Origin: Neisseria leonii
GTDB taxonomy: Bacteria > Pseudomonadota > Gammaproteobacteria > Burkholderiales > Neisseriaceae
DNA length: 64,000 nucleotides
Reading direction: 5' to 3'
Assembly (NCBI RefSeq): GCF_028776105.2
Contig: NZ_CP145606.1
Location: forward strand, 1,736,001 to 1,800,000
Made by a program: the position numbers and the translations under genes. The notes under the pieces were generated by a model. That model saw only the letters and a list, made by a program, of their open reading frames with translations. It had not been told where the DNA came from and did not search any database. Positions within the stretch are counted from its first letter, which is position 1, and each line of letters begins with the position of its first letter. Shown piece by piece: positions 35,908 through 46,003 of the stretch.

Positions 35908-36168
35908 TCAATATGGCAGGTTTTGTTTCTCAATGAAATTGCCCAGCACATCGGGGGCATACCATTCCAATGCCCGGCAGTATGCCGCAAATTCAAAAAC
36001 GTCCAAACGCCTGTCGCCGGTTTCCACTTTGCCCACAAACGAATGAATCACATTCAGCCGGTCGGCCAGAGCACGCTGCGACAAACCCAGTTCCAGCCGG
36101 CGCTGAATCAGAATTTGCCGCAGGTGCAGATGCTCGGCGGAGTGGACGGAAAGACGCAGATTGGCCAT
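35908..36168 (-). CDS. XRE-family repressor of the dnd-like island
   Basis: Small regulator of 86 residues consisting of one helix-turn-helix domain (LRQILIQRRLELGLSQRALADRLNVIHSFVGKVETGDRRLDVFEFAAYCRAL). It is divergent from dndC, with two matching palindromes in the 68-base gap, one of them covering its own start codon. It thus probably represses itself and the dnd genes. It may take the place of DndB, the usual repressor of dnd operons, which is not present here. Confidence 0.8.
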   Translation of the reverse strand: MANLRLSVHSAEHLHLRQILIQRRLELGLSQRALADRLNVIHSFVGKVETGDRRLDVFEFAAYCRALEWYAPDVLGNFIEKQNLPY

Positions 36169-36189
36169 TGCACCGATTTTAGGTACAAT
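36167..36189. promoter_or_regulatory. Operator O1 over the XRE start codon
   Basis: ATTGCACC, seven bases (gatttta), GGTACAAT: an inverted repeat with one mismatch. It shares arm sequence and spacing with O2, 27 bases away centre to centre (2.6 helical turns). Confidence 0.65.
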
Positions 36190-36192
36190 AGC

Positions 36193-36217
36193 TGTTGCAC
36201 CTGTTTTGGGTGCAACA
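36193..36217. promoter_or_regulatory. Operator O2 upstream of dndC
   Basis: TGTTGCACC, seven bases (tgttttg), GGTGCAACA: a perfect nine-base inverted repeat located 20 bases ahead of the dndC start. Confidence 0.7.
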
Positions 36218-36236
36218 CCATTTTAATACTCAGGCC

Positions 36237-37397
36237 ATGACTGCGATTCCCATCTGCCTAGAAACACCGTTCGACCGGATCCGCAACGGCATCATCGACG
36301 AATACCTCAGCAGCGTGCAAGACTACCCGTGGATTGTTACCTTTTCCGGCGGTAAAGACAGCACACTGGTGGCGCATCTGGTGTTTGAAGCCCTGCTCGA
36401 ACTGCCGCCCAGCCTGAGGCGGCGGCAGCTCTATTTCGTGTCCAACGATACGCTGGTGGAAAGCCCACTGGTGGTGCGGCATATGCGCGAAGTACTGAAA
36501 CAGATCGAAACGGCCGCTGCCATCCTGAAACTGCCGGTCAGCGGACACATCACCACGCCGAGGCCGTCTGAAACCTTTTGGACGCTGCTGATCGGTAAAG
36601 GCTATCCCTCGCCCAACCGCTCTATGCGCTGGTGCACCGACCGACTGAAAATCGAACCGACCAGCACATTTGTCAAAGAAACCGTCAATGCCAACGGTGC
36701 GGCCATCATCATTTTAGGCGTGCGCAAAGACGAGTCGGCCACGCGCAAAGCCAGCATCGAAAACCATCAAAATCTGGAAAACTCCAATCTCACGCCGCAT
36801 ACCGGCCTGCCCAACGCTTTTGTTTACCGCCCGATTGCCGATTTGACCACCGACGATGTATGGGAATTTCTTGCCGCCAACACCCCGCCGTGGGGCGGCA
36901 CGCATGATGCCCTAATCCGTCTCTACCGCGAAGCGGCCGGCGGCGAATGCCCGATTGTCCTTTCTCGGGAAGAAGCACCCGGCTGCGGTACCAATTCCAG
37001 CCGCTTCGGCTGCTGGACGTGTACCGTCGTCAATAAAGATAAAAGCCTGCAAGGCTTTGTCGATGCGGGAAAAACCGAATTTCAGCCGCTGCTGGATTTC
37101 CGCGACTGGCTGGTTGAAATCCGCAACAGGCCGGAATACCGCCAAGTCGAACGGCGCAACGGCACGGTAACCATCAAAGGCGGCAGACACATTCCCGGCC
37201 CGTTTACGCTGGAAGCGCGGCAGATGATTTTGGACAGACTCCTGGCTGTTCAGACGGCCTACGGCGGCGAACTGATTTCACAGGAAGAAGTCGACATGAT
37301 TAAAAAAATCTGGACGGAAGATGTCATTCAGACCTACACAAGGAAAAAGTATGAGCAAAGCAGAAGAAAAAGTAGCCGATTTATTGCTGTGGAGTGA
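36237..37397 (+). CDS. dndC: DndC-like DNA phosphorothioation protein (PAPS reductase/ATP pyrophosphatase family)
   Basis: Member of the PP-loop ATP pyrophosphatases; in Dnd systems DndC activates or transfers sulfur that replaces an oxygen in the DNA backbone. The 386-residue protein has the PP-loop SGGKDST at residues 37-43, the segment RSMRWCTDRLKI near 133, LGVRKDESATRK, and a C-terminal cysteine cluster (GECPIVLS, PGCGT, FGCWTCTVVNKDK) suited to a [4Fe-4S] cluster. These features match DndC, although it is shorter than several known DndC proteins. I chose the ATG at 36237 because an earlier frame start lies within operator O2. An uptake sequence lies inside the gene near 36561. It overlaps the small downstream gene by 47 bases. 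Confidence 0.88.
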   Translation: MTAIPICLETPFDRIRNGIIDEYLSSVQDYPWIVTFSGGKDSTLVAHLVFEALLELPPSLRRRQLYFVSNDTLVESPLVVRHMREVLKQIETAAAILKLPVSGHITTPRPSETFWTLLIGKGYPSPNRSMRWCTDRLKIEPTSTFVKETVNANGAAIIILGVRKDESATRKASIENHQNLENSNLTPHTGLPNAFVYRPIADLTTDDVWEFLAANTPPWGGTHDALIRLYREAAGGECPIVLSREEAPGCGTNSSRFGCWTCTVVNKDKSLQGFVDAGKTEFQPLLDFRDWLVEIRNRPEYRQVERRNGTVTIKGGRHIPGPFTLEARQMILDRLLAVQTAYGGELISQEEVDMIKKIWTEDVIQTYTRKKYEQSRRKSSRFIAVE

Positions 37398-37566
37398 TGA
37401 CGCAGCCAAACAGCTGATGACCGAAATTGCCGCCGAACACGGCGTATCCGTTGAAGCATTGGCCGAATTGGTGGCGTGGGAGCGCGACCAGCAGGAACGT
37501 GTCCGCCGGCGCGGTATGACGGAAATGTTTGACGAAATTTTTGAAAATAAAAGCTACTGGAAATAA
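37351..37566 (+). CDS. Small Dnd-associated protein
   Basis: Protein of 71 residues (MSKAEEKVADLLLWSDD to ENKSYWK), with AAGGAAAAAGT directly ahead of the ATG. It overlaps the last 47 bases of dndC in another frame and ends three bases before dndD, so it is clearly part of the operon. It is charged and helical, without membrane segments or cysteines. Small proteins of this size are annotated beside some dnd and other DNA-modification genes as DNA modification system-associated small proteins; I believe this is one, but I could not check. Function unknown. Confidence 0.75.
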   Translation: MSKAEEKVADLLLWSDDAAKQLMTEIAAEHGVSVEALAELVAWERDQQERVRRRGMTEMFDEIFENKSYWK

Positions 37567-37569
37567 ATC

Positions 37570-39615
37570 ATGTGGATACATTCAATCCGCCTGCGTAATT
37601 TTAAGTCTTACGACAATGCGTTTTTCAGTTTTCCGGAATCTGACGGTGAGCGCAATATCGTATTAATCAGTGCACAAAACGGCCACGGTAAAACCACGCT
37701 TTTAGAAGCTGTTTATCTGTGTCTGTATGACAAGGATGCGGTCAGCCATCTGCAACGGGCGGGTTTGAACGGCAGGGGAAAAGGTTATGCCGATTTTCTG
37801 CAATCGGCTTTGCACCATCAGGCCGAAATCAAATACGGCCGCAGTGAAATGGCTTTGGAGTTGGAAATCCGGCAACACTATCAAGGTAGGAAATACGGTT
37901 TGCGCATCAAGCGTAAATGGTATTTCGACAGTAACGGCAAATACCAGCCTGCCGACAACTCGGTCATCATTGAGTTGGCTAAAAATGACAATTACAAATT
38001 GGTTGACGAAGATATGGCGGACAAGTATCTGAACGCATATGCGCTGCCGATAGACTATGCACCGTTTTTCTTTTTCGACGGAGAAAAAATTGTGAAAACC
38101 GCTGAAGGAAGCGGCGCTGGAGTGTGGCTGAATCAGGCTCTGAAAGGCTTGTTGGGTGTGACTTTGCTGGAAAAGCTGCGCGTCAGTTTAAAAGACTACC
38201 GCACCAAAAATATTTCTCAGAACAGCAGCGATAAAATGCAGAAAGATTTGGTAGAAGCCGAACGTAAGCTGCAACAGGTGCAAGCTGCTTTGGCGGTGTC
38301 CAATGAAGAGCTGGCAGATGCCCAGGCACAATGGCAGCATTGGACGGAAAAACGCGACAGTTTGATGCAGCAGCTCGGCGGCGGCAGCGATATCCGTACT
38401 TCGCAAGATTTGATGGCTCAGCGTGAAAAGCTGGAAAAAGAAATGGAGGAGTTTCAGAGCCATATCAAAGCTGCTGTGAAAGCCATGCCGCTGGCTTTTC
38501 TCCCCAGAGGCCGTCTGAAAAATTTACAGGTGCAATTGGAGCGCGAGAAAAACCGTTTGAACCACGAAGCAGGCAAAGACCAGATTGCCGACAAAGTGGA
38601 TGATTTTTGGCAGGCTTTTGTTGCCAGCGAAAAAGTCGGACAGGCATTTGGCGCCATGGCAGACACCATTTTCAACCAGCCCGTATTGAAAGAGGCGGTC
38701 AAAGACTGCTGGGAAAAGCTGTTTTACCCGCTACCTGAGAACTGTGCGGACAAAATCGAACACAATTATCTTTCAGTCAATGCCCATGCGGAGATTCAAA
38801 ATGAAATCAGTAGATTAAGTGGCATTCCGCAAGGCGGAATCGGCAAATGGCTGGAGGAAAATGAAAAACGCGAATCGGAACGCAAACGGGTGATTGCCGA
38901 AATCGAGAATCTGCAAGGTACTAATAATGACGAGCTTGTCGGGCAACTGAAAGAAGCCAACCAAGAAACCGATAAATACAAAGAGCGTTCAGGCCGTTTG
39001 AAAAGCAATCTGATTCAATCCCAAAAACAGCAGGAACGTTTGAGCAATGAAGTTTCTGATTTACAGAACAGAATCAGCGACAGCAATCCTCAATTGCTTA
39101 AATCGCGCCGTGCAGGAGAGGTGGATAACGTCATCGTACGCCTGATTGAAGAATTGCTGAAACAGAAAGTTGGCGCTGTGGGAGAAGCTGCTACACGGAT
39201 TAACCGTGACATCGCCCACGACAAACGTATCGACCGTATCCGTATTAAAGCTAACGGGCAAATGAGTCTGTTCGGTTATGACGGTTATGAAACCCATGTC
39301 GATACATCGGCAGGGCAAATGCAGATTTTGATTATGTCGCTGGTGTCGGCATTGGCGGAAGTGACGCACTATCAAGCCCCATTTATTATTGACACGCCTC
39401 TGGCGCGTTTGGACAAAGGCCACCGTGAGGGCTTGTTTAACCACTGGGCCGGTTTAAGGCAGCAAGTGGTTTTGTTGTCGCAGGATACGGAAATCACATC
39501 CGAAGTGTACCGCCGTTTGGAGCCGCATATCAGCCGTACCTATCTGGTGAAGGCCGAATCATTGATGAGCGGCGGTGCACGCTCGCAGGTAACTGCCGAC
39601 GTATATTTTGAATAA
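37570..39615 (+). CDS. dndD: DndD-like SMC/Rad50-type ATPase of DNA phosphorothioation
   Basis: ATPase of the SMC/RecN/Rad50 kind; in Dnd systems DndD is thought to open DNA or nick it for sulfur insertion together with DndC and DndE. The 681-residue protein starts with IRLRNFKSYDN and the Walker A loop SAQNGHGKTTLLEA (about residues 37-48), has the marker APFFFFDGEKI, long coiled-coil arms (about 210-540, EKLEKEMEEFQSH and many Q/E/K-rich heptads), and ends with the signature SAGQMQILIMSLV and Walker B PFIIDTPLARLD. FFFDGE and the overall layout are typical of DndD. Base composition is more AT-rich than the core genes. An uptake sequence lies inside near 38510. Confidence 0.9.
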   Translation: MWIHSIRLRNFKSYDNAFFSFPESDGERNIVLISAQNGHGKTTLLEAVYLCLYDKDAVSHLQRAGLNGRGKGYADFLQSALHHQAEIKYGRSEMALELEIRQHYQGRKYGLRIKRKWYFDSNGKYQPADNSVIIELAKNDNYKLVDEDMADKYLNAYALPIDYAPFFFFDGEKIVKTAEGSGAGVWLNQALKGLLGVTLLEKLRVSLKDYRTKNISQNSSDKMQKDLVEAERKLQQVQAALAVSNEELADAQAQWQHWTEKRDSLMQQLGGGSDIRTSQDLMAQREKLEKEMEEFQSHIKAAVKAMPLAFLPRGRLKNLQVQLEREKNRLNHEAGKDQIADKVDDFWQAFVASEKVGQAFGAMADTIFNQPVLKEAVKDCWEKLFYPLPENCADKIEHNYLSVNAHAEIQNEISRLSGIPQGGIGKWLEENEKRESERKRVIAEIENLQGTNNDELVGQLKEANQETDKYKERSGRLKSNLIQSQKQQERLSNEVSDLQNRISDSNPQLLKSRRAGEVDNVIVRLIEELLKQKVGAVGEAATRINRDIAHDKRIDRIRIKANGQMSLFGYDGYETHVDTSAGQMQILIMSLVSALAEVTHYQAPFIIDTPLARLDKGHREGLFNHWAGLRQQVVLLSQDTEITSEVYRRLEPHISRTYLVKAESLMSGGARSQVTADVYFE

Positions 39616-39645
39616 CAGGCCGTCTGAAATATACAGGAAAACATC

Positions 39646-41213
39646 ATGTACCAATTGGAACATACCGATAAAGGTTGGGACACCGACTTTTTCCACACCC
39701 TGATGGGCGAAAAGCGGATTTTTTCCAGCAAAGCCGCCAAACAGATCCGCACCCGTCTCCATGATGCGGGCGCACTGCCCCCGTTTGACGGCCATTACGA
39801 CTGGGCGATGCTGTGCATCGGCTACTGTTTGGCCAGAGGCTTTGCCGACAGCGCGGGCAGGCTGATTCCCGCGCCCGACACACAAGGGACGGAAATTGTT
39901 TCGTTCCAAACCTGTTTTCAGAGCTATTCGCGCCTGTGGCTGGTGATGTTGAGCGATACATTGTTCCGTCTCAATCCCGACAAAGCCGTCACCAAAGACG
40001 ATTTATATACGCTGATTCAGAACTTATGGCACACCGGCGCGGTGGAGCTGGAAAAATCTTGGGAAGGATGTAAACGGTTTAAGCCTGACGATGAATTGGC
40101 CGCACGGCAGACTTTTTTGAATGAGCTGACCGATTTGGCGGTAAAAAATGCCGGCACCGGCACGTCTGCCTCCGTTTCAGACGGCCCCGGAAATACGGCA
40201 CAAACGGAAAACCGCAAACAGTCTCTGCGCAAAGCACTCAGCCAAATGAATATTCCCGTGGCCGAGCTGGCATTCAGCCATGCCGGTGCACGTTACGATA
40301 TTTACCGTTTGCGTTTGAGTGAATATAAAGATGTGAAAAAATCCCATCAGGCTTTATGTTCGGCCTTGGGCGTGAAAGCGGAATCGCTGCACATTGTGCC
40401 CAGCTACAACAACGGCAGCCATGCTTATGATGTGAGCTGCTGCGCGATGAGTCAAGCTGGCACAAACTGGGGGCGCAGAAATTCAGAGAAGCCATGCAGT
40501 CGTATCAGGACGACTTTGCCCTGCCTGTGTGCATCGGCATCGACGAATACGGCAAAGCGCATTTTCAGGACTTGGCCCGCGCGCCGCATCTGCTGATCGG
40601 CGGCAGCACCGGTTCGGGCAAATCGGTTTTGGTGCGTACGATGCTGCGCAGCCTGTTTGATTTGTGCAGAGGGCAGGACAAATTGGAAGTGGCCATTCTC
40701 GATGTCAAAAAAATCGATTATCAGATATTTGCAGACGAAGAAGACCTCTATGAAGAGCGGATTCTGGACGATTATGACGAAATGTATCAATTTTTGCGCG
40801 ACAGCGTTGCTGAATCCGACCGCCGTTACAGCCTGATGCAGCAATACGGCGTACAGAAATTGCAGGAGCTGCCCGATTCGGTGCGCCCGCGCTACCGCGT
40901 GATTGTGGTGGACGAGTTGGCCAATCTGCTCAAACAGCATAACAATATGGAAAAGCCATTGATAATGTTGGCGGAAAAAGCACGCGCTTCGGGCATTCAT
41001 CTGGTTTTGAGTACCCAACGCCCCGATGCCGAAACGTTTAGCGGTACACTTCGCACCAACCTGCCTGCGCGCATTGCCCTGAAGGTGCAGAAGTCCACAG
41101 AATCGAAAATCATTCTGGACGAAACCGGCGCGGAACACCTGCTCGGACAGGGCGACCATTTGGTTCGCTGGGGCAGCGGCAGCGCGTATTTTCTGCATGG
41201 CTTTGATGTGTAG
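39646..41213 (+). pseudogene. DndE-like/FtsK-HerA-like ATPase, broken by a one-base frameshift
   Basis: Two adjacent frames make one protein of about 520 residues. The first frame (39646-40440) gives an N-terminal part with the segment HYDWAMLCIGYCLARGFA, which resembles the core of DndE (WNILCRWAFCRSLAEP), followed by a middle domain. The second frame (from about 40434 to 41213) gives an FtsK/SpoIIIE-type ATPase: LLIGGSTGSGKSVLVRTML (Walker A), RVIVVDELANLL (Walker B), LVLSTQRPDAETF. The join is at about 40437: the sequence gatgtgagctgctgcgc would read D-V-S-L-L-R with one more C. Upstream in the second frame there is a stop at 40428. It may be a real inactivating or slippage site, or a sequencing error. 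ACAGGAAAAC precedes the ATG. An uptake sequence lies inside near 40180. Confidence 0.8.
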
Positions 41214-41359
41214 GAACGGTTGAAAATCCAAGGCCGTCTGAAAATCTTTTCAGACGGCCTTGCCGCAGGCATTTGAATGTTGCACCTGATATGCGGATGT
41301 AAGATGTCCGGCTCAGCAAACCAAACTGCCCGAAAGCAAACAAATCTGCCGGAAACCGC
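41214..41359. terminator. Intergenic region with paired uptake-sequence terminator
   Basis: A tight hairpin AGGCCGTCTGAAAA / TTTTCAGACGGCCT sits at 41230-41261, just after the dnd operon. The rest of the gap has no gene; the next gene converges from the right. Confidence 0.7.
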
Positions 41360-42232
41360 TCATGCCGCTTGCGGGCGGTAGCGGCTTGGCGGCCACCCGA
41401 ACAGTTTTTTAAAGGCTTTACTGAAACACTCGGGATTGCCGTATCCGGCCAGCGCCGCCGCTTCGCCGACGCTGTGGTTTTGCAGCAGTGCGTTGCGTGC
41501 CAGTTGCAGGCGGTATTCGCGGCGGTAGTGGGCGATGCTGATGCCGAAGGCCGTCTGAAACTCCTGCTGCAATGTGGTGGGGTTGCTGTGGCAGGCTTTG
41601 GCCAATGTGTTCAGGCAGGCATTGGCAGCCGCCGGGTCGTGCAGCAGTTTGAGCAGTTTTTGCAGCCGCGCAGACAACGGTTCGGCACAGTGGTCGGGAA
41701 ACAGGGTCTGCAAAACTTCTGCGGCCAGTGCCATGCTCTGCATGGTTTGGTGCAGTGCGCGCCACGGTGCGGGGCGGCGGCAAGTCTGCATCAGGCTGCG
41801 GATTTTCTCGGCCAAAGGCCGGGTAATCTCCAGATAATGCGGTTGGAGATGGGCCCGGCGTAAGGCTTTCAGAATGTGGGGCGGACAGCCCATATTTTCC
41901 AGCCAAACATTGCTGCACAATAAAACCAGTTCGCGCTGGCAGCCGCTATGGAAGATTTTGCAGCCTTCTTCCGGTGTATTGATTGGCAGGCAGACCGCCG
42001 AGCGGCTGCTGTCTGCCTGCAGTCTGATTTCACGGCTGCCGAAGCGGAGATGGGATTGCCCTTCCAACGTAAAAATAAGGCGTAACGCCGGATAGAAACG
42101 GCCGCTTTCGCGGCAGGTGCCGTTCAGGGTGGTGAGTTCGCTGTGTTTCAAGTCGAGGCCGCCGAGCATGAAATAAGTGTTGACGGTGCCGTGTTGGTGA
42201 GAGAGGCGGACGGGGTGGGCGGTATGAATCAT
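41360..42232 (-). CDS. AraC-family transcriptional regulator
   Basis: Regulator of 290 residues with a C-terminal double helix-turn-helix (LNTLAKACHSNPTTLQQEFQTAFG ... NHSVGEAAALAGYGNPECFSKAFKKLFGWPPSRYRPQ), the AraC signature, and an N-terminal ligand-binding part with two cysteine pairs. It is divergent from a TonB-dependent receptor with a downstream esterase. Regulators of this type (PchR and MpeR are known examples) sense an incoming ferric siderophore and switch on its receptor; this role is inferred. An uptake sequence lies inside near 41550. Confidence 0.88.
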   Translation of the reverse strand: MIHTAHPVRLSHQHGTVNTYFMLGGLDLKHSELTTLNGTCRESGRFYPALRLIFTLEGQSHLRFGSREIRLQADSSRSAVCLPINTPEEGCKIFHSGCQRELVLLCSNVWLENMGCPPHILKALRRAHLQPHYLEITRPLAEKIRSLMQTCRRPAPWRALHQTMQSMALAAEVLQTLFPDHCAEPLSARLQKLLKLLHDPAAANACLNTLAKACHSNPTTLQQEFQTAFGISIAHYRREYRLQLARNALLQNHSVGEAAALAGYGNPECFSKAFKKLFGWPPSRYRPQAA

Positions 42233-42303
42233 TTTGTTGCGGTAGGGGTATTGTTGCGGATTTTTCGGGTCGTGCGGTAACGGTTAATCATATAATAAAT
42301 CTA

Positions 42304-42321
42304 AGAATAGTTCTCAATTCT
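42304..42321. promoter_or_regulatory. Possible Fur or AraC-regulator site ahead of the receptor
   Basis: AGAAT-agttctca-ATTCT is an imperfect palindrome overlapping AATAGTTCTCAATT, similar to the AATAATTCTCATT core of some neisserial Fur boxes. It ends just ahead of the receptor ribosome site. Confidence 0.45.
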
Positions 42322-42335
42322 AAGGAGTATCCGTG

Positions 42336-44459
42336 ATGAAAACAAGCCGTTTGATTTTCCGCCTCGCGCCATTGCCCGCGCTGTTTGCCGCTGCATTCGC
42401 CTCTGCCGCCGAGCAGGCCGAATTGGAAAGGGTTGATGTGTACGGCACGCGTAATGCCGCGCGTTACGAATATGTGTCCGACTCCGCGCAAACGCGCACT
42501 GCCGCCAAAACCGACGGTTCGCTGATGGATGTTCCGCAATCCTCCAGTACGGTTACGCGCCGCCATTTGGATGAACGCGAACCGCAGGATATTGCGGAAA
42601 CGCTGGCTTATACTTCGGGTGTGTCGGGCGGCTACCGCGGTGAAAATACGCATATCGAAATGTCGGTGCGCGGCATCGGCGGCAAAAGCAACGGCGGCGG
42701 CCAGCCGACGTTTTGGGACGGTTTGCGCTACGGTGCTTCGCTGGAAATCAATCCCTACATCATCGACCGCATCGATATTCTGAAAGGTCCGGCTTCCATG
42801 CTGTACGGGCAGAGCAATCCGGGCGGCATTGTCAACCTGATGACCAAACAGGCCACCGGCAGCAACGAAAGTGAAATCGTGCTGAAAACAGGAAGCGGAA
42901 ACCGCGCGGAAATCGGTTTGGATATAGATAAAGAATGGAACGGACAATTGGCCTACCGTTTGGTGGCCAATGCCAAACAAGTGGACTGGCAGGCGGGCAA
43001 ACAGACGCGCCAACGCAGCCTGACGCTCGCACCCTCATTGATGTGGCGGCCTACGGAACGCACCAAGTTGGTATTGAAAGGGCTTTACGAAAGGCAGCCG
43101 GAGGCAGGCGATCGCAATTTTCTGATTAGCGATGGAACGCTGTTTCCCGTCGACAGGCAACGTATTCCGCTCGACTTTTTCAGCGGCGACCCTGACTACC
43201 ACAATCTGAACAATACCAAAAACCAAATCGGCTACGAACTGGAACACAAGTTTAACGACAATCTGAGCCTGCAGCAGAACCTGCGTTACGGTGCCTATAA
43301 CAACTATCTGAAATCCTTGGTGGTGTGGAACTCGCTCGGCGGCAGCAATGTCCGGCGCATGGCACGCATTTTTGATGAAAACTGGCGTGAGTTTCAGGCA
43401 GATACCCGGCTGGTGTGGAAAACGGGTTCGGATGCCTTGCGCCACACGGTGCTGTTCGGCGCGGATTACCAGGACAGCCGCAGCGGTTTGAAAAGCTATT
43501 TGGGCGATGCGCCGCCGATTGACTGGCGCAAACCGGTTTACGGTGTGGCAGTCGATACTCCGGCTTTAAGCGGCGACGAAAAGAGCCGTGTCCGCCAAAC
43601 CGGCCTTTATCTGCAAGACCGGATCGAATGGGGCAACTGGCGCTTCCTGCTCGGCGGCCGTTACGATATGGCCGGTACTTCGCAGGAGAATAGGTTCAGG
43701 GCAACATCCAACAGCCATTCCGACAATAAATTCACTTGGCGGGCAGGCGCGGTTTACCGTTTTTCAGACGGCCTCAGTGCCTACGCCAATTATGCGACTT
43801 CGTTTCTGCCCGAAGCGGGCATCTCGGCCGACGGCGGCAGCTTAAAACCGACTACCGCCAATCAGGTGGAAGTGGGTGTGAAATACCGGCCGACGCCGCG
43901 GGTATTGCTGACCGGCGCACTGTTCAACATCAATCAATCCAATTTGTCGGTGTACGATCCGGTAACCTGGCAGAAAACGCAGGTCGGCAAAGTCCGTACA
44001 CGCGGTGCGGAAATCGAAGTACAGGGCGACATCACGCCGCAATGGGGCATCAGCGGCAGCTATACCTATTTAGACAAGAAAGTGCGCGAGGACAGCAATC
44101 CCGCCTTGGTCGGCACCACACAATGGGGCGTACCGAAACACTCCGCTTCGCTTTGGCTGGATTACCGCTTCGGCAGCCAAAACCCGCTCAAAGGCCTGAG
44201 CATCGGCACGGGTCTGCGCCATACCGGCAAAACCTGGGGCGATAACGCCAATACCTTCCGAGTGCCCGCCTATACGGTTTGGGACATGAAACTGGCCTAC
44301 AAACCCGGCAGCGCCGTTCCCGCGCTGAAAGGCACGCAAGTGCAGCTGAACGTGCAGAATCTCGCCGGCAAACAATATGTAGCCTCTTGCGCCAACCGCG
44401 TCTCATGTTTCTATGGAAAAGGCCGTGTTTGGACGCTTTCCGGCGGCTATCGTTGGTAA
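42336..44459 (+). CDS. TonB-dependent siderophore receptor
   Basis: Outer-membrane ferric-siderophore receptor of 707 residues. It has a signal peptide (MKTSRLIFRLAPLPALFAAAFASAA), a TonB box-like ERVDVYGT, a plug with VPQSSSTVTRR, YRGENTHIEMSVRGIGG, GPASMLYGQSNPGGIVNLMTK, all typical of the FhuA/FoxA class, and a C-terminal barrel ending GGYRW. AAGGAG lies eight bases ahead of ATG 42336; an in-frame GTG at 42333 is less likely. The esterase gene starts 12 bases downstream, and an AraC regulator is divergent, forming a siderophore-use unit. An uptake sequence lies inside near 43763. Confidence 0.93.
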   Translation: MKTSRLIFRLAPLPALFAAAFASAAEQAELERVDVYGTRNAARYEYVSDSAQTRTAAKTDGSLMDVPQSSSTVTRRHLDEREPQDIAETLAYTSGVSGGYRGENTHIEMSVRGIGGKSNGGGQPTFWDGLRYGASLEINPYIIDRIDILKGPASMLYGQSNPGGIVNLMTKQATGSNESEIVLKTGSGNRAEIGLDIDKEWNGQLAYRLVANAKQVDWQAGKQTRQRSLTLAPSLMWRPTERTKLVLKGLYERQPEAGDRNFLISDGTLFPVDRQRIPLDFFSGDPDYHNLNNTKNQIGYELEHKFNDNLSLQQNLRYGAYNNYLKSLVVWNSLGGSNVRRMARIFDENWREFQADTRLVWKTGSDALRHTVLFGADYQDSRSGLKSYLGDAPPIDWRKPVYGVAVDTPALSGDEKSRVRQTGLYLQDRIEWGNWRFLLGGRYDMAGTSQENRFRATSNSHSDNKFTWRAGAVYRFSDGLSAYANYATSFLPEAGISADGGSLKPTTANQVEVGVKYRPTPRVLLTGALFNINQSNLSVYDPVTWQKTQVGKVRTRGAEIEVQGDITPQWGISGSYTYLDKKVREDSNPALVGTTQWGVPKHSASLWLDYRFGSQNPLKGLSIGTGLRHTGKTWGDNANTFRVPAYTVWDMKLAYKPGSAVPALKGTQVQLNVQNLAGKQYVASCANRVSCFYGKGRVWTLSGGYRW

Positions 44460-44470
44460 GGGCAGGCCGA

Positions 44471-46003
44471 ATGAAATATTTGCTTGCTTTGGTCTTAACC
44501 GCCGCGCCGCTCGCGGCCGCTGCCGATACGGTACGGCAGGCCTGTCTGAAAGGCCGTGCCGAAGATCGGATTGCCGTTGATTTAACTGAAGGCCGTTATA
44601 TTGAAGGAAACATCGAATTCAGCCGTCTTGACTTTTCCCGCAGCGGCGTGTCGCTGAGCGCGGTTTCCGACACCGCACCCGAACGCAAATTGTTCGGCGA
44701 CCAAACCAACCCGCAGGATTTTTTACTGTGGTATCCGTACGGCAGCCGCGTTTGGCTGAAATTGAGCGCACCGGACAACCGCCGTATGTGTTACCGGCTC
44801 ACCCTGAAACAGAGTGCGGCGCATTACGATGAAACGGTGCGTGAAAACGCAGTGCCGCAAAGCCCGCGTTTGCAGCAGTTGCAGCGGGAAATTGCCCGGC
44901 AAGGCAGCCGTGCCGAAGAGCGGTTTTGGACGGAAATCCGCCGGCAGGGCGCACCTTTGGTGGAAAAAGCCGATAGCGGGCACAGCCTGCTCACTTTTCT
45001 TTACCGCAACGCCGCGCACAACGTGCGCCTGCTCGGCGGGCCGTCGAATGATCACGAATGGCTGGAGAAACTGCCCGGCAGCAGCGTGTGGTATAAAACA
45101 TTTAAAGTCCGCAACGATTTGCGGCTGAGCTATCGTTTGGCACCCGATATTCCCACGCCATACGGTGCCGATGCTTACCGTCGTCGCCGTGCCCTATTAT
45201 CGGTTTTGATGCCCGACCCGCTCAACCGCCGCCGTTTTGCCGAATTCTCGCTGGTCGATTTGGCTGAGCCGCACGACCAAGCAGCCGCTGCACCGCGAGG
45301 CCGTCTGAAAAATTATGCGTTCCACAGCAAAAAACTCGGCAACTCCCGCCGTATCTGGATTTACCAAACCGACCCGCAAGCTGCCGACCCTGTGGTGCTG
45401 TATTTGTTCGACGGTTGGCAGTATCTCTACGAAACCCGCCTGGTACCGATACTTGACGGCCTGCGGCGCCAAAACAGATTGCCGCCCGTAGCCGTGGTAT
45501 TTATCGATAATGCCGACAGACGCGCCGAATTACCGGCCAATCCCGATTTTGCCGATATGCTCGCCGAAGAGCTGATGCCTTTTGTCGAACAACATACCGC
45601 CATCCGCCACCGGCCACAGCATACCGTTGTTTCAGGCAGCAGCTATGGCGGATTGGCCGCTGCCTATGCTGCCTACCGCAGGCCGGAAACTTTCGGCAAT
45701 GCCATTCCGCTTTCCGGCTCGTTCTGGCACAAAAACAATAACGGACAGAAGCTGGCCGACCAAGTCGCCGCAAAAAAACTTCCGCCCCAACATTGGTTTA
45801 TCGCTGCCGGCAGTTACGAAACCGCACGTACCGGCGAAGATCCCGCTGACGGCATTGCCGCCGGCAGCCGCCGTTTGGCCGATGTGCTGACTGCGCAAGG
45901 GCATGATGCCGTCTATCGGGAATACAGCGGCGGCCACGACTATGCCGTCTGGCAATATGCCTTAACCGACGGCTTGGTTTATTTGTTTGGCAGATCCCGT
46001 TAG
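44471..46003 (+). CDS. Enterochelin-esterase-like hydrolase (Fes/IroD type), exported
   Basis: Alpha/beta hydrolase of 510 residues with a signal peptide (MKYLLALVLTAAPLAAAA). An N-terminal Fes-like domain (SNDHEWLEKLPGSSVWYKTFKV, YRLAPDIP) is followed by an esterase domain with the nucleophile serine in VVSGSSYGGLAAAYAA and the catalytic histidine in YSGGHDYAVWQYAL. Fes enzymes hydrolyse ferric enterobactin to release iron. Most are cytoplasmic, but the signal peptide here means it would act in the periplasm, like IroE. It is encoded 12 bases behind the receptor, so it probably breaks down the siderophore brought in by it. An uptake sequence lies inside near 45298. Confidence 0.88.
   Translation: MKYLLALVLTAAPLAAAADTVRQACLKGRAEDRIAVDLTEGRYIEGNIEFSRLDFSRSGVSLSAVSDTAPERKLFGDQTNPQDFLLWYPYGSRVWLKLSAPDNRRMCYRLTLKQSAAHYDETVRENAVPQSPRLQQLQREIARQGSRAEERFWTEIRRQGAPLVEKADSGHSLLTFLYRNAAHNVRLLGGPSNDHEWLEKLPGSSVWYKTFKVRNDLRLSYRLAPDIPTPYGADAYRRRRALLSVLMPDPLNRRRFAEFSLVDLAEPHDQAAAAPRGRLKNYAFHSKKLGNSRRIWIYQTDPQAADPVVLYLFDGWQYLYETRLVPILDGLRRQNRLPPVAVVFIDNADRRAELPANPDFADMLAEELMPFVEQHTAIRHRPQHTVVSGSSYGGLAAAYAAYRRPETFGNAIPLSGSFWHKNNNGQKLADQVAAKKLPPQHWFIAAGSYETARTGEDPADGIAAGSRRLADVLTAQGHDAVYREYSGGHDYAVWQYALTDGLVYLFGRSR

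What the first reader, a model, noticed from the sequence alone, without database searches (positions are those of the whole stretch)
36167..41213. Compact Dnd-like phosphorothioation island without dndA, dndB or restriction genes
The sequence shows an XRE repressor, dndC (PP-loop SGGKDST plus Cys cluster), a 71-residue protein, dndD (SMC-type ATPase) and a gene that seems to join a DndE-like N-terminus to an FtsK/HerA-like ATPase. Known Dnd operons (dndBCDE, with dndFGH as restriction partner, or the Ssp type) have a separate small DndE, usually a DndB regulator, and often restriction genes nearby. Here DndB seems replaced by an XRE protein and the DNA translocase is built into the last protein. 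This could be a modification-only system, a self-contained modification/restriction system in which the translocase is the effector, or a reduced form. The layout is not one I can match to a described subtype.
Basis: partly seen in the sequence, partly recalled or inferred. Interest (0 to 1): 0.8.

Follow-up and report, generated by a model that had tools for sequence, protein, structure and literature searches.

The report
Split-gene DNA sulfur-tagging operon, one broken
This is a small operon of a known kind that is predicted to swap sulfur into the DNA backbone, here with its last gene broken; comparison with relatives suggests that its puzzling 71-residue protein is a piece split off the sulfur-transfer enzyme that may still dock it to its partner.

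Summary
The genes are real: divergent XRE regulator, dndC, a 71-aa protein (Pfam Sp-DndD), dndD, then DndE-like and FtsK parts. Corrections: (1) the last gene lies in two frames here; 11 of 13 genus relatives show one ORF, a twelfth has a long open frame, one is decayed. (2) The layout is in print: DndE fused to HerA/FtsK beside a DndD-type ATPase (PMC10853773); of the 80 dndC loci kept from my scan, 49 show such a protein. (3) XRE belongs to the cassette: two palindromic operators lie between it and dndC, the genome's only exact matches. Added result: the small protein is homologous to the C-terminal tail of unsplit DndC (HHalign 97.7%, E 1.3e-12; 20 shuffles at or below 1%). In E. coli that tail is predicted, with pull-down support, to bind DndD (PMC12193691); the L, E, R mutated there align to L40, E44, R53 here. 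No DndB; DndF and DndH searches also found nothing convincing but had no positive control. IscS is present. An SBD (PT-reader) gene sits beside XRE in three relatives, not here. Verdict: new member of a described subtype, probably impaired in this genome; function predicted, not shown.

The parts
35908..36168 (-). XRE-family regulator gene, divergent from dndC; conserved part of the cassette in the genus
   Evidence: PF01381 31.6 bits; beside dndC in 13 of 14 genus genomes with dndC
36161..36189 (+). predicted dndC promoter TTGGCC-17-TACAAT
   Evidence: consensus scan only, mean 0.1 expected in shuffles
36168..36188 (.). operator 1, TTGCACC-N7-GGTACAA, inside the predicted promoter
36195..36215 (.). 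operator 2, TTGCACC-N7-GGTGCAA, 27 bp from operator 1
36237..37397 (+). dndC, sulfurtransferase core without the DndD-docking tail; PP-loop SGGKDST at residue 37, cysteines 133/238/250/259/262, loop GYPSPNRSMRW at 122
   Evidence: TIGR03183 378.7 bits; motifs
37351..37566 (+). Sp-DndD small protein, read here as the detached DndC C-terminal (DndD-docking) domain
   Evidence: PF20306; HHalign to unsplit DndC tails; tail/gap complementarity; E. coli residue mapping
37570..39615 (+). dndD, SMC/Rad50-like ABC ATPase without a CxC hook
   Evidence: TIGR03185 239.2 bits, just under cut-off; no CxC
39646..40596 (+). first part of the broken last gene: DndE-like domain, in frame with relatives up to about 40434
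40449..41213 (+). second part of the broken last gene, other frame: FtsK/HerA ATPase, Walker A at 40602, Walker B near 40896
   Evidence: PF01580 80.9 bits

Best explanation
A Dnd-type DNA phosphorothioation operon of the DndE-FtsK-fusion subtype with a split DndC. Proposed working of the intact family: IscS gives sulfur to DndC (4Fe-4S, PP-loop), which puts it into the DNA backbone at a short site; because this DndC lacks the C-terminal tail that is thought to hold canonical DndC to DndD, the small protein Sp docks on the DndD head and bridges to DndC; DndE binds the DndD coiled coil and DNA; the FtsK/HerA domain fused to DndE pumps duplex DNA so that the complex scans the chromosome. XRE represses itself and the operon through two operators over the dndC promoter. 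In this genome the DndE and FtsK halves are separated by a frame break, so activity is probably lost or weakened. Shown by sequence: gene identities, the split, the conserved operators, the break in this assembly. Inferred: docking by Sp, repression, pumping, loss of function.
For: HMM hits; Sp against unsplit DndC tails HHalign 97.7%, E 1.3e-12, 20 column-shuffled controls at or below 1.0%; among 80 dndC loci, DndC tails of 84-103 aa go with a dndC-dndD gap of -44 to +6 nt (15 of 15 measurable) and tails of 27 aa or less with a gap of 185-259 nt (50 of 53 measurable; a separate small protein was recognised by profile in 34 of these 50); E. coli DndC 433-482 is predicted to bind DndD and the triple change L458D/E462A/R471A broke binding in pull-down (PMC12193691), and these three align to L40/E44/R53 of the window Sp; two exact operators only here in 2.2 Mb; IscS 766.5 bits; unbroken DndE-FtsK in relatives.
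Against: No PT measured. E. coli DndC has a second predicted DndD interface in its very last helix, beyond the part that Sp aligns to (439-484). The position of R471 is R/K in 13 of 13 neisserial Sp but A in 15 of 35 others. In 16 of the 50 loci with the right gap no small protein was recognised. PADLOC scores the window DndD higher as PbeC (373 bits) than as DndD (280). The frame break could be an assembly error or, less likely, recoded; DndE and FtsK pieces might work as two proteins. No fold could be computed.
Confidence: 0.7

Rival explanations
1. Self-contained defence system: the DndE-FtsK translocase is also the effector, acting on unmodified invader DNA (for example by pumping or blocking), so no nuclease is needed.
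For: No restriction-type hit among 6 flanking proteins of the window and 8 flanking proteins of six relatives scanned with PADLOC (helicase and weak ATPase hits only); DndB not found in 14 of 14 genomes; DndH effectors include HerA/FtsK domains of the same clade 3 as the DndE-fused ones (PMC10853773).
Against: No nuclease hit for any cassette protein; a translocase alone is not known to me to restrict DNA (recalled); most flanking genes of relatives were only listed, not profile-searched; absence tests for DndF and DndH had no positive control.
Confidence: 0.15
2. The last gene is not truly broken: programmed frameshift, or an assembly error.
For: No other stop in the 789 + 765 bases of the two parts; both parts align well to intact relatives.
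Against: Relatives use one frame with no shift (11 of 13 read as one ORF, a twelfth by a 565-aa open frame); the longest single-base run within 40400-40500 is GGGGG; the genus shows other decayed copies: G008 broken in several genes, G020 a DndE remnant without dndC. None of this excludes an assembly error.
Confidence: 0.25
3. The small protein is a negative regulator or viral sensor, as proposed for the small disordered protein (PbeB) of CxC systems, not a docking domain.
For: PMC10853773 proposes such a role for the CxC-system SP.
Against: Homology to the DndC tail and positional complementarity; 13 invariant columns among 13 neisserial-type Sp.
Confidence: 0.12

Closest known systems
Dnd systems with DndE fused to a clade-3 HerA/FtsK domain (Rakesh et al. 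2024, PMC10853773, citing an earlier paper, its reference 24, which is not held)
   Same: DndD-type ATPase gene next to a DndE + HerA/FtsK protein; a Burkholderia glumae plasmid cassette is annotated dndC, small protein, dndD, 'DNA translocase FtsK'; Sp-DndD is a Pfam family
   Different: Here the last gene is broken; XRE with two operators and no DndB-like gene. The split DndC is shared with most of the fusion-type relatives in my sample
Canonical dndBCDE (E. coli B7A type, PMC12193691)
   Same: DndC catalytic core with the four cluster cysteines, DndD, DndE domain, IscS as possible donor
   Different: DndC of 386 aa (372-389 in most relatives) + separate 71-aa tail rather than about 540 aa; DndE tied to FtsK; no DndB; no DndFGH found (weak test)
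PbeABCD / CxC-ATPase systems
   Same: PADLOC's PbeC models score the window DndD best
   Different: No CxC hook; no PbeA hit among cassette or flanking window proteins
SspABCD
   Same: PP-loop sulfurtransferase; FtsK part matches the end of PADLOC SspH models
   Different: ATPase is ABC/Rad50-like, not ORC/CDC6; no SspB or SspC hit among the cassette proteins

Membership tests
Dnd phosphorothioation (DndCDE core) | DndC with PP-loop and cluster cysteines | tested here: met
   TIGR03183 over cut-off; C133, C250, C259, C262 and C238
Dnd phosphorothioation (DndCDE core) | DndD ABC ATPase | tested here: met
   TIGR03185 239.2 against cut-off 245.85 (just below); full-length PADLOC DndD match 280 bits, but PbeC 373
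Dnd phosphorothioation (DndCDE core) | DndE | tested here: met
   remote: PF08870 in 39 of 42 homologous fusions; profile match 93.9%; window piece alone no Pfam hit
Dnd phosphorothioation (DndCDE core) | PT bonds in genomic DNA | not testable with these tools
   needs LC-MS or iodine cleavage
DndE-HerA/FtsK fusion subset | one polypeptide DndE + HerA/FtsK | tested here: not met
   two frames in the window; one ORF in 11 of 13 genus relatives, a twelfth by open frame
DndE-HerA/FtsK fusion subset | adjacent DndD-type ATPase gene | tested here: met
dndBCDE with DndFGH | DndB | tested here: not met
   PF14072 in 0 of 14 genomes; 2 of 14 control genomes rang
dndBCDE with DndFGH | DndF/DndH | tested here: inconclusive
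   TIGR03238: 8 of 14 genomes with 18.9-21.8-bit hits over 68 positions, none over the 50-bit cut-off; DndF model, own genome only: no match; no control genome rang for either
PbeABCD/CxC | CxC zinc hook in the ATPase | tested here: not met
   no CxC in window DndD
SspABCD | ORC/CDC6-type SspC and SspB | tested here: not met
   no such hits among the cassette proteins; rest of genome not searched

The most novel reading that the evidence does not exclude
DndC was divided into a catalytic subunit and a free DndD-docking adaptor (Sp), so that the sulfurtransferase can be loaded on or kept off the scanning motor separately; in Neisseria the XRE/operator arm, which in a few species carries its own PT-reader (SBD) gene, senses the state of modification of the DNA and adjusts the dose, and the DndE-FtsK pump does both scanning and exclusion of unmodified DNA.
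Probability: 0.15. Interest if true: 0.65.

Novelty: new member of a known kind. Interest (0 to 1): 0.4.

Why it matters
The locus itself is a further example of a layout described from sequence; I saw no experiment on it in the papers I read. What is useful is that it turns a Pfam family named only by its neighbourhood into a testable statement: the small protein is the DndD-docking domain of DndC, set free. It also gives an XRE-operator pair that can be assayed directly, and a genus in which the same cassette is found intact, broken and as remnants.

Tried and rejected
Programmed or phase-variable frameshift: no long single-base run at the change and relatives need no shift. PbeABCD and Ssp membership: see membership test. 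A conserved restriction partner: clustering of ORFs of at least 90 aa from the window, 13 genus loci and 51 other loci, families in at least three loci only, gave no nuclease family shared by the genus; a family of sulfur-binding-domain proteins came up in three genus loci and, joined to HNH, in two others. Rare partners would be missed. PADLOC on 6 window neighbours found UvrD-type helicase matches (GajB and others, as expected of a UvrD-like helicase; my reading) and a weak ParA match; on 8 neighbours of six relatives, a DinG-type helicase, a 19-bit match and nothing else. Empty site: the neighbouring soj/parA gene is in 46 of 46 genus genomes, but its upstream neighbour varies among the 30 loci read, so no clean empty site was shown. 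DNA uptake signals: 7 of the window's 82 copies of GCCGTCTGAA start in 35911-41300, about the window's average density (motif recalled). Downstream terminator scan: none found. Structure prediction was tried ten times and never ran: queue full; so no fold search either. PDB sequence searches with DndC and DndD gave no relative.

Weak points of my own calls: one row of the FtsK profile (L062) was read out of frame with stops set to X; that profile was used for labels only. Rows of the window, L061 and L062 (the same contig as L138) were in the profiles, so their E-values there are not independent. L119 was dropped from the tails because its tail is not Sp-like, and L071 (39 aa) from the Sp set; L119 still counts as unsplit. 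Split/unsplit labels were set by me; 12 of 85 rows had no label. That tree is a quick one without bootstrap, with long branches and no known root. Three of the 80 scan loci repeat genomes already in the genus or phylum sets (L063 = G016, L066 = G033, L138 = G208).
Full report
WHAT IS THERE. The window lies in a single 2.2 Mb contig. I take it for Neisseria: the nearest named rows in the DndC tree are Neisseria and the window holds 82 copies of the neisserial uptake motif (motif recalled). Reading right from 35908: an XRE gene on the minus strand, then on the plus strand dndC, a 71-aa gene that overlaps the end of dndC, dndD, and a last gene that should run to 41213. Profile hits are in the observation check. 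The island has 51.5% G+C against 57.9 and 58.1% in the 10 kb on each side.

THE LAST GENE IS BROKEN. In the window it occupies two frames: the DndE-like part is in frame with relatives up to about 40434, the FtsK part from about 40449 on. Of 13 genus relatives, 11 loci show one ORF; the aligned proteins are 521-531 aa. One more (G031, cut by a contig end in L028) has its DndE part on another contig inside a 565-aa open frame that I did not read further. One (G008) is broken in dndC, dndD and dndE-ftsK. So intact copies exist. Neither part of the window gene has another stop, which fits a recent break or an assembly error.

THE SUBTYPE IS IN PRINT. PMC10853773 (abstract, passages, and sections 16, 17, 22 and 24 seen) states that clade-3 HerA/FtsK domains occur in a subset of Dnd systems next to a DndD-related ATPase and fused to DndE, citing an earlier paper that is not held. 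They come from Proteobacteria, Bacteroidota, Planctomycetota and others. PF08870 DndE matches 39 of the 42 fusion proteins that I aligned (the other seven, with doubtful starts or otherwise left out, were not given). Their ATPase parts are not all of one sort: FtsK_SpoIIIE matches 23 of 42, HerA (DUF87) 38, TrwB 29, with overlaps. Within the genus 14 of 46 genomes have dndC; in the family 18 of 83 have the DndE-like part.

THE SMALL PROTEIN LOOKS LIKE A PIECE OF DndC. The first hint was that the last 60 or so positions of DndC models match the small protein (E 3e-4 to 7e-4), and that the only PF20306 matches outside the window's own genome among 398 sampled genomes of the phylum lie inside 503- and 461-aa open frames: G401 (29.5 bits, over cut-off) and G208 (20.9 bits, under it), where dndC proves unsplit. 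That survey also shows that PF20306 is seldom recognised: 3 of 398. HHalign of 48 small proteins (13 neisserial-type, 35 others) against 15 tails of unsplit DndC gives 97.7%, E 1.3e-12; neisserial ones alone 95.6%, E 1.2e-8; 20 column-shuffled tails give at most 1.0% and E of at least 0.057. Position agrees: of 80 loci, 16 have a long DndC tail (84-103 aa), and in the 15 with dndD downstream the gap between the genes is -44 to +6 nt; 64 have a tail of 27 aa or less, and of the 53 with a measurable gap 50 show 185-259 nt, the room of one small gene; in 34 of these 50 the small protein was recognised by profile, in 16 only the gap speaks. The three exceptions (L065, L071, L106) have something else between or beside. 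Eleven short-tail loci had no dndD downstream. On a quick tree of 85 DndC cores the split/unsplit state needs 2 changes among the 73 labelled rows; with the 12 unlabelled rows as a third state it needs 6. The root is unknown, so the direction of the change is not shown.

WHY THIS MATTERS FOR MECHANISM. PMC12193691 (abstract, outline, passages and part 1 of section 4 seen) predicts that E. coli B7A DndC 433-482 and, at a second interface, its last helix hold DndD, and reports that L458D/E462A/R471A breaks binding in pull-down. I took DndC from the record of E. coli H240: its GYPAP loop at 135, cysteines 146, 273, 280 and 283, and L458, E462 and R471 fall at the numbers named in the paper. The Sp profile aligns to residues 439-484 (weak score, 15.6 bits), so the second interface has no counterpart in Sp. 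The three residues align to L40, E44 and R53 of the window small protein. L is kept in 13 of 13 neisserial-type and 35 of 35 other small proteins and 12 of 15 unsplit tails; E or Q in 11 of 13, 31 of 35 and 14 of 15; R or K in 13 of 13, 17 of 35 and 14 of 15. Hence my reading: Sp is the free DndD-docking domain. I found no statement of this in print: two searches and the passages; the library holds only openly licensed PubMed Central papers, and the earlier paper on these systems is not in it.

REGULATION. Between XRE and dndC lie two palindromes, 36168-36188 and 36195-36215. The pattern TTGNACCNNTTTTNGGTNCAA with up to 2 mismatches matches the 2.2 Mb genome at these two places only, both exact; the same pattern read backwards has 4 hits at that looseness, so it is the exactness and the pairing that count. 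By my reading of the 13 intergenic stretches printed (window and 12 relatives), 11 have two sites, several with altered left arms, and 2 (L025, L031) have one; two genomes with XRE but no dndC (G012, G032) have such sites too. The predicted dndC promoter overlaps site 1. XRE relatives of at least 59% identity occur in 15 of 46 genus genomes: 13 of the 14 with dndC, and these two; three more genomes have only weak matches of about 31-32%.

PARTNERS. IscS is present (766.5 bits), so absence of dndA is not unusual. DndB was found in 0 of 14 genomes, with 2 of 14 control genomes ringing. TIGR03238 gave sub-cut-off matches of 18.9-21.8 bits in 8 of 14 genomes, which I did not identify, and the DndF model nothing in the own genome; for both no control genome rang, so absence is not proved. 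Three relatives (G014, G031, G037) carry, overlapping XRE, an ORF of 173-178 aa; the one of G014 (L027) matches the sulfur-binding domain SBDHga1 (PDB 8h0l, E 6.8e-12) and those of G037 and G031 are 98% and 77% identical to it. G005 has a fragment beside XRE; G001, G038 and G020 have a more distant copy (35-37%) elsewhere and G016 a fragment; G000 has none (8 of 46 in all). PADLOC results for 14 flanking proteins are in Tried and rejected.

EVOLUTION. Parts of the cassette have been exchanged: L029 and L027 have nearly identical FtsK parts and DndC, but L029's DndD and DndE parts are only 36% and 31% identical to the window's, where L027's are 64% and 48%. Flanking genes differ in most genus loci; the window, L027 and L029 share a UvrD-type helicase gene on the left. 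The cassette has decayed in G008 and G020, and relatives of the last protein covering at least 80% of it occur in 5 plasmid records.

OTHER PAPERS. PMC11662687: abstract and introduction, for IscS standing in for DndA. PMC7464106: one table passage that names Neisseria strains. PMC12707154: passages. Other papers only as search listings.

VERDICT. A member of a Dnd subtype described from sequence, probably crippled in this genome; the identity of the small protein is the part worth following.

Noticed in passing
L027:11222-11755, L028:10370-10891, L029:6267-6803: Sulfur-binding-domain (PT reader) protein without a recognised nuclease, overlapping the XRE gene of the dnd cassette in three genomes of the genus.
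   Followed up: partly
L065:3580-4536 and L106:8936-9916: SBD-HNH endonuclease gene sits after dndC; no small protein and only the later part of DndD was recognised behind it in both.
   Followed up: no
L107, L110, L111, L127: Loci with dndA, dndC, dndD and a short dndE followed by a second DndD and a DndE-FtsK fusion.
   Followed up: no
L059 (G012) and L060 (G032): XRE relative with the same kind of operators but no dnd genes beside it.
   Followed up: partly
L031 (G008); G020:C1:2397789-2399260: Decayed copies of the cassette: several breaks in G008; a DndE remnant without dndC in G020.
   Followed up: partly
window 41360-46003: AraC-type regulator, TonB-dependent-receptor-like and esterase-like genes downstream of the cassette; by eye they look like a siderophore uptake locus.
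   Followed up: no
L174 (Moraxella osloensis plasmid pSKB0120-5): A 48% identical DndE-FtsK homologue annotated only as hypothetical on a 46 kb plasmid, with a dndC-like match elsewhere on the same plasmid.
   Followed up: no
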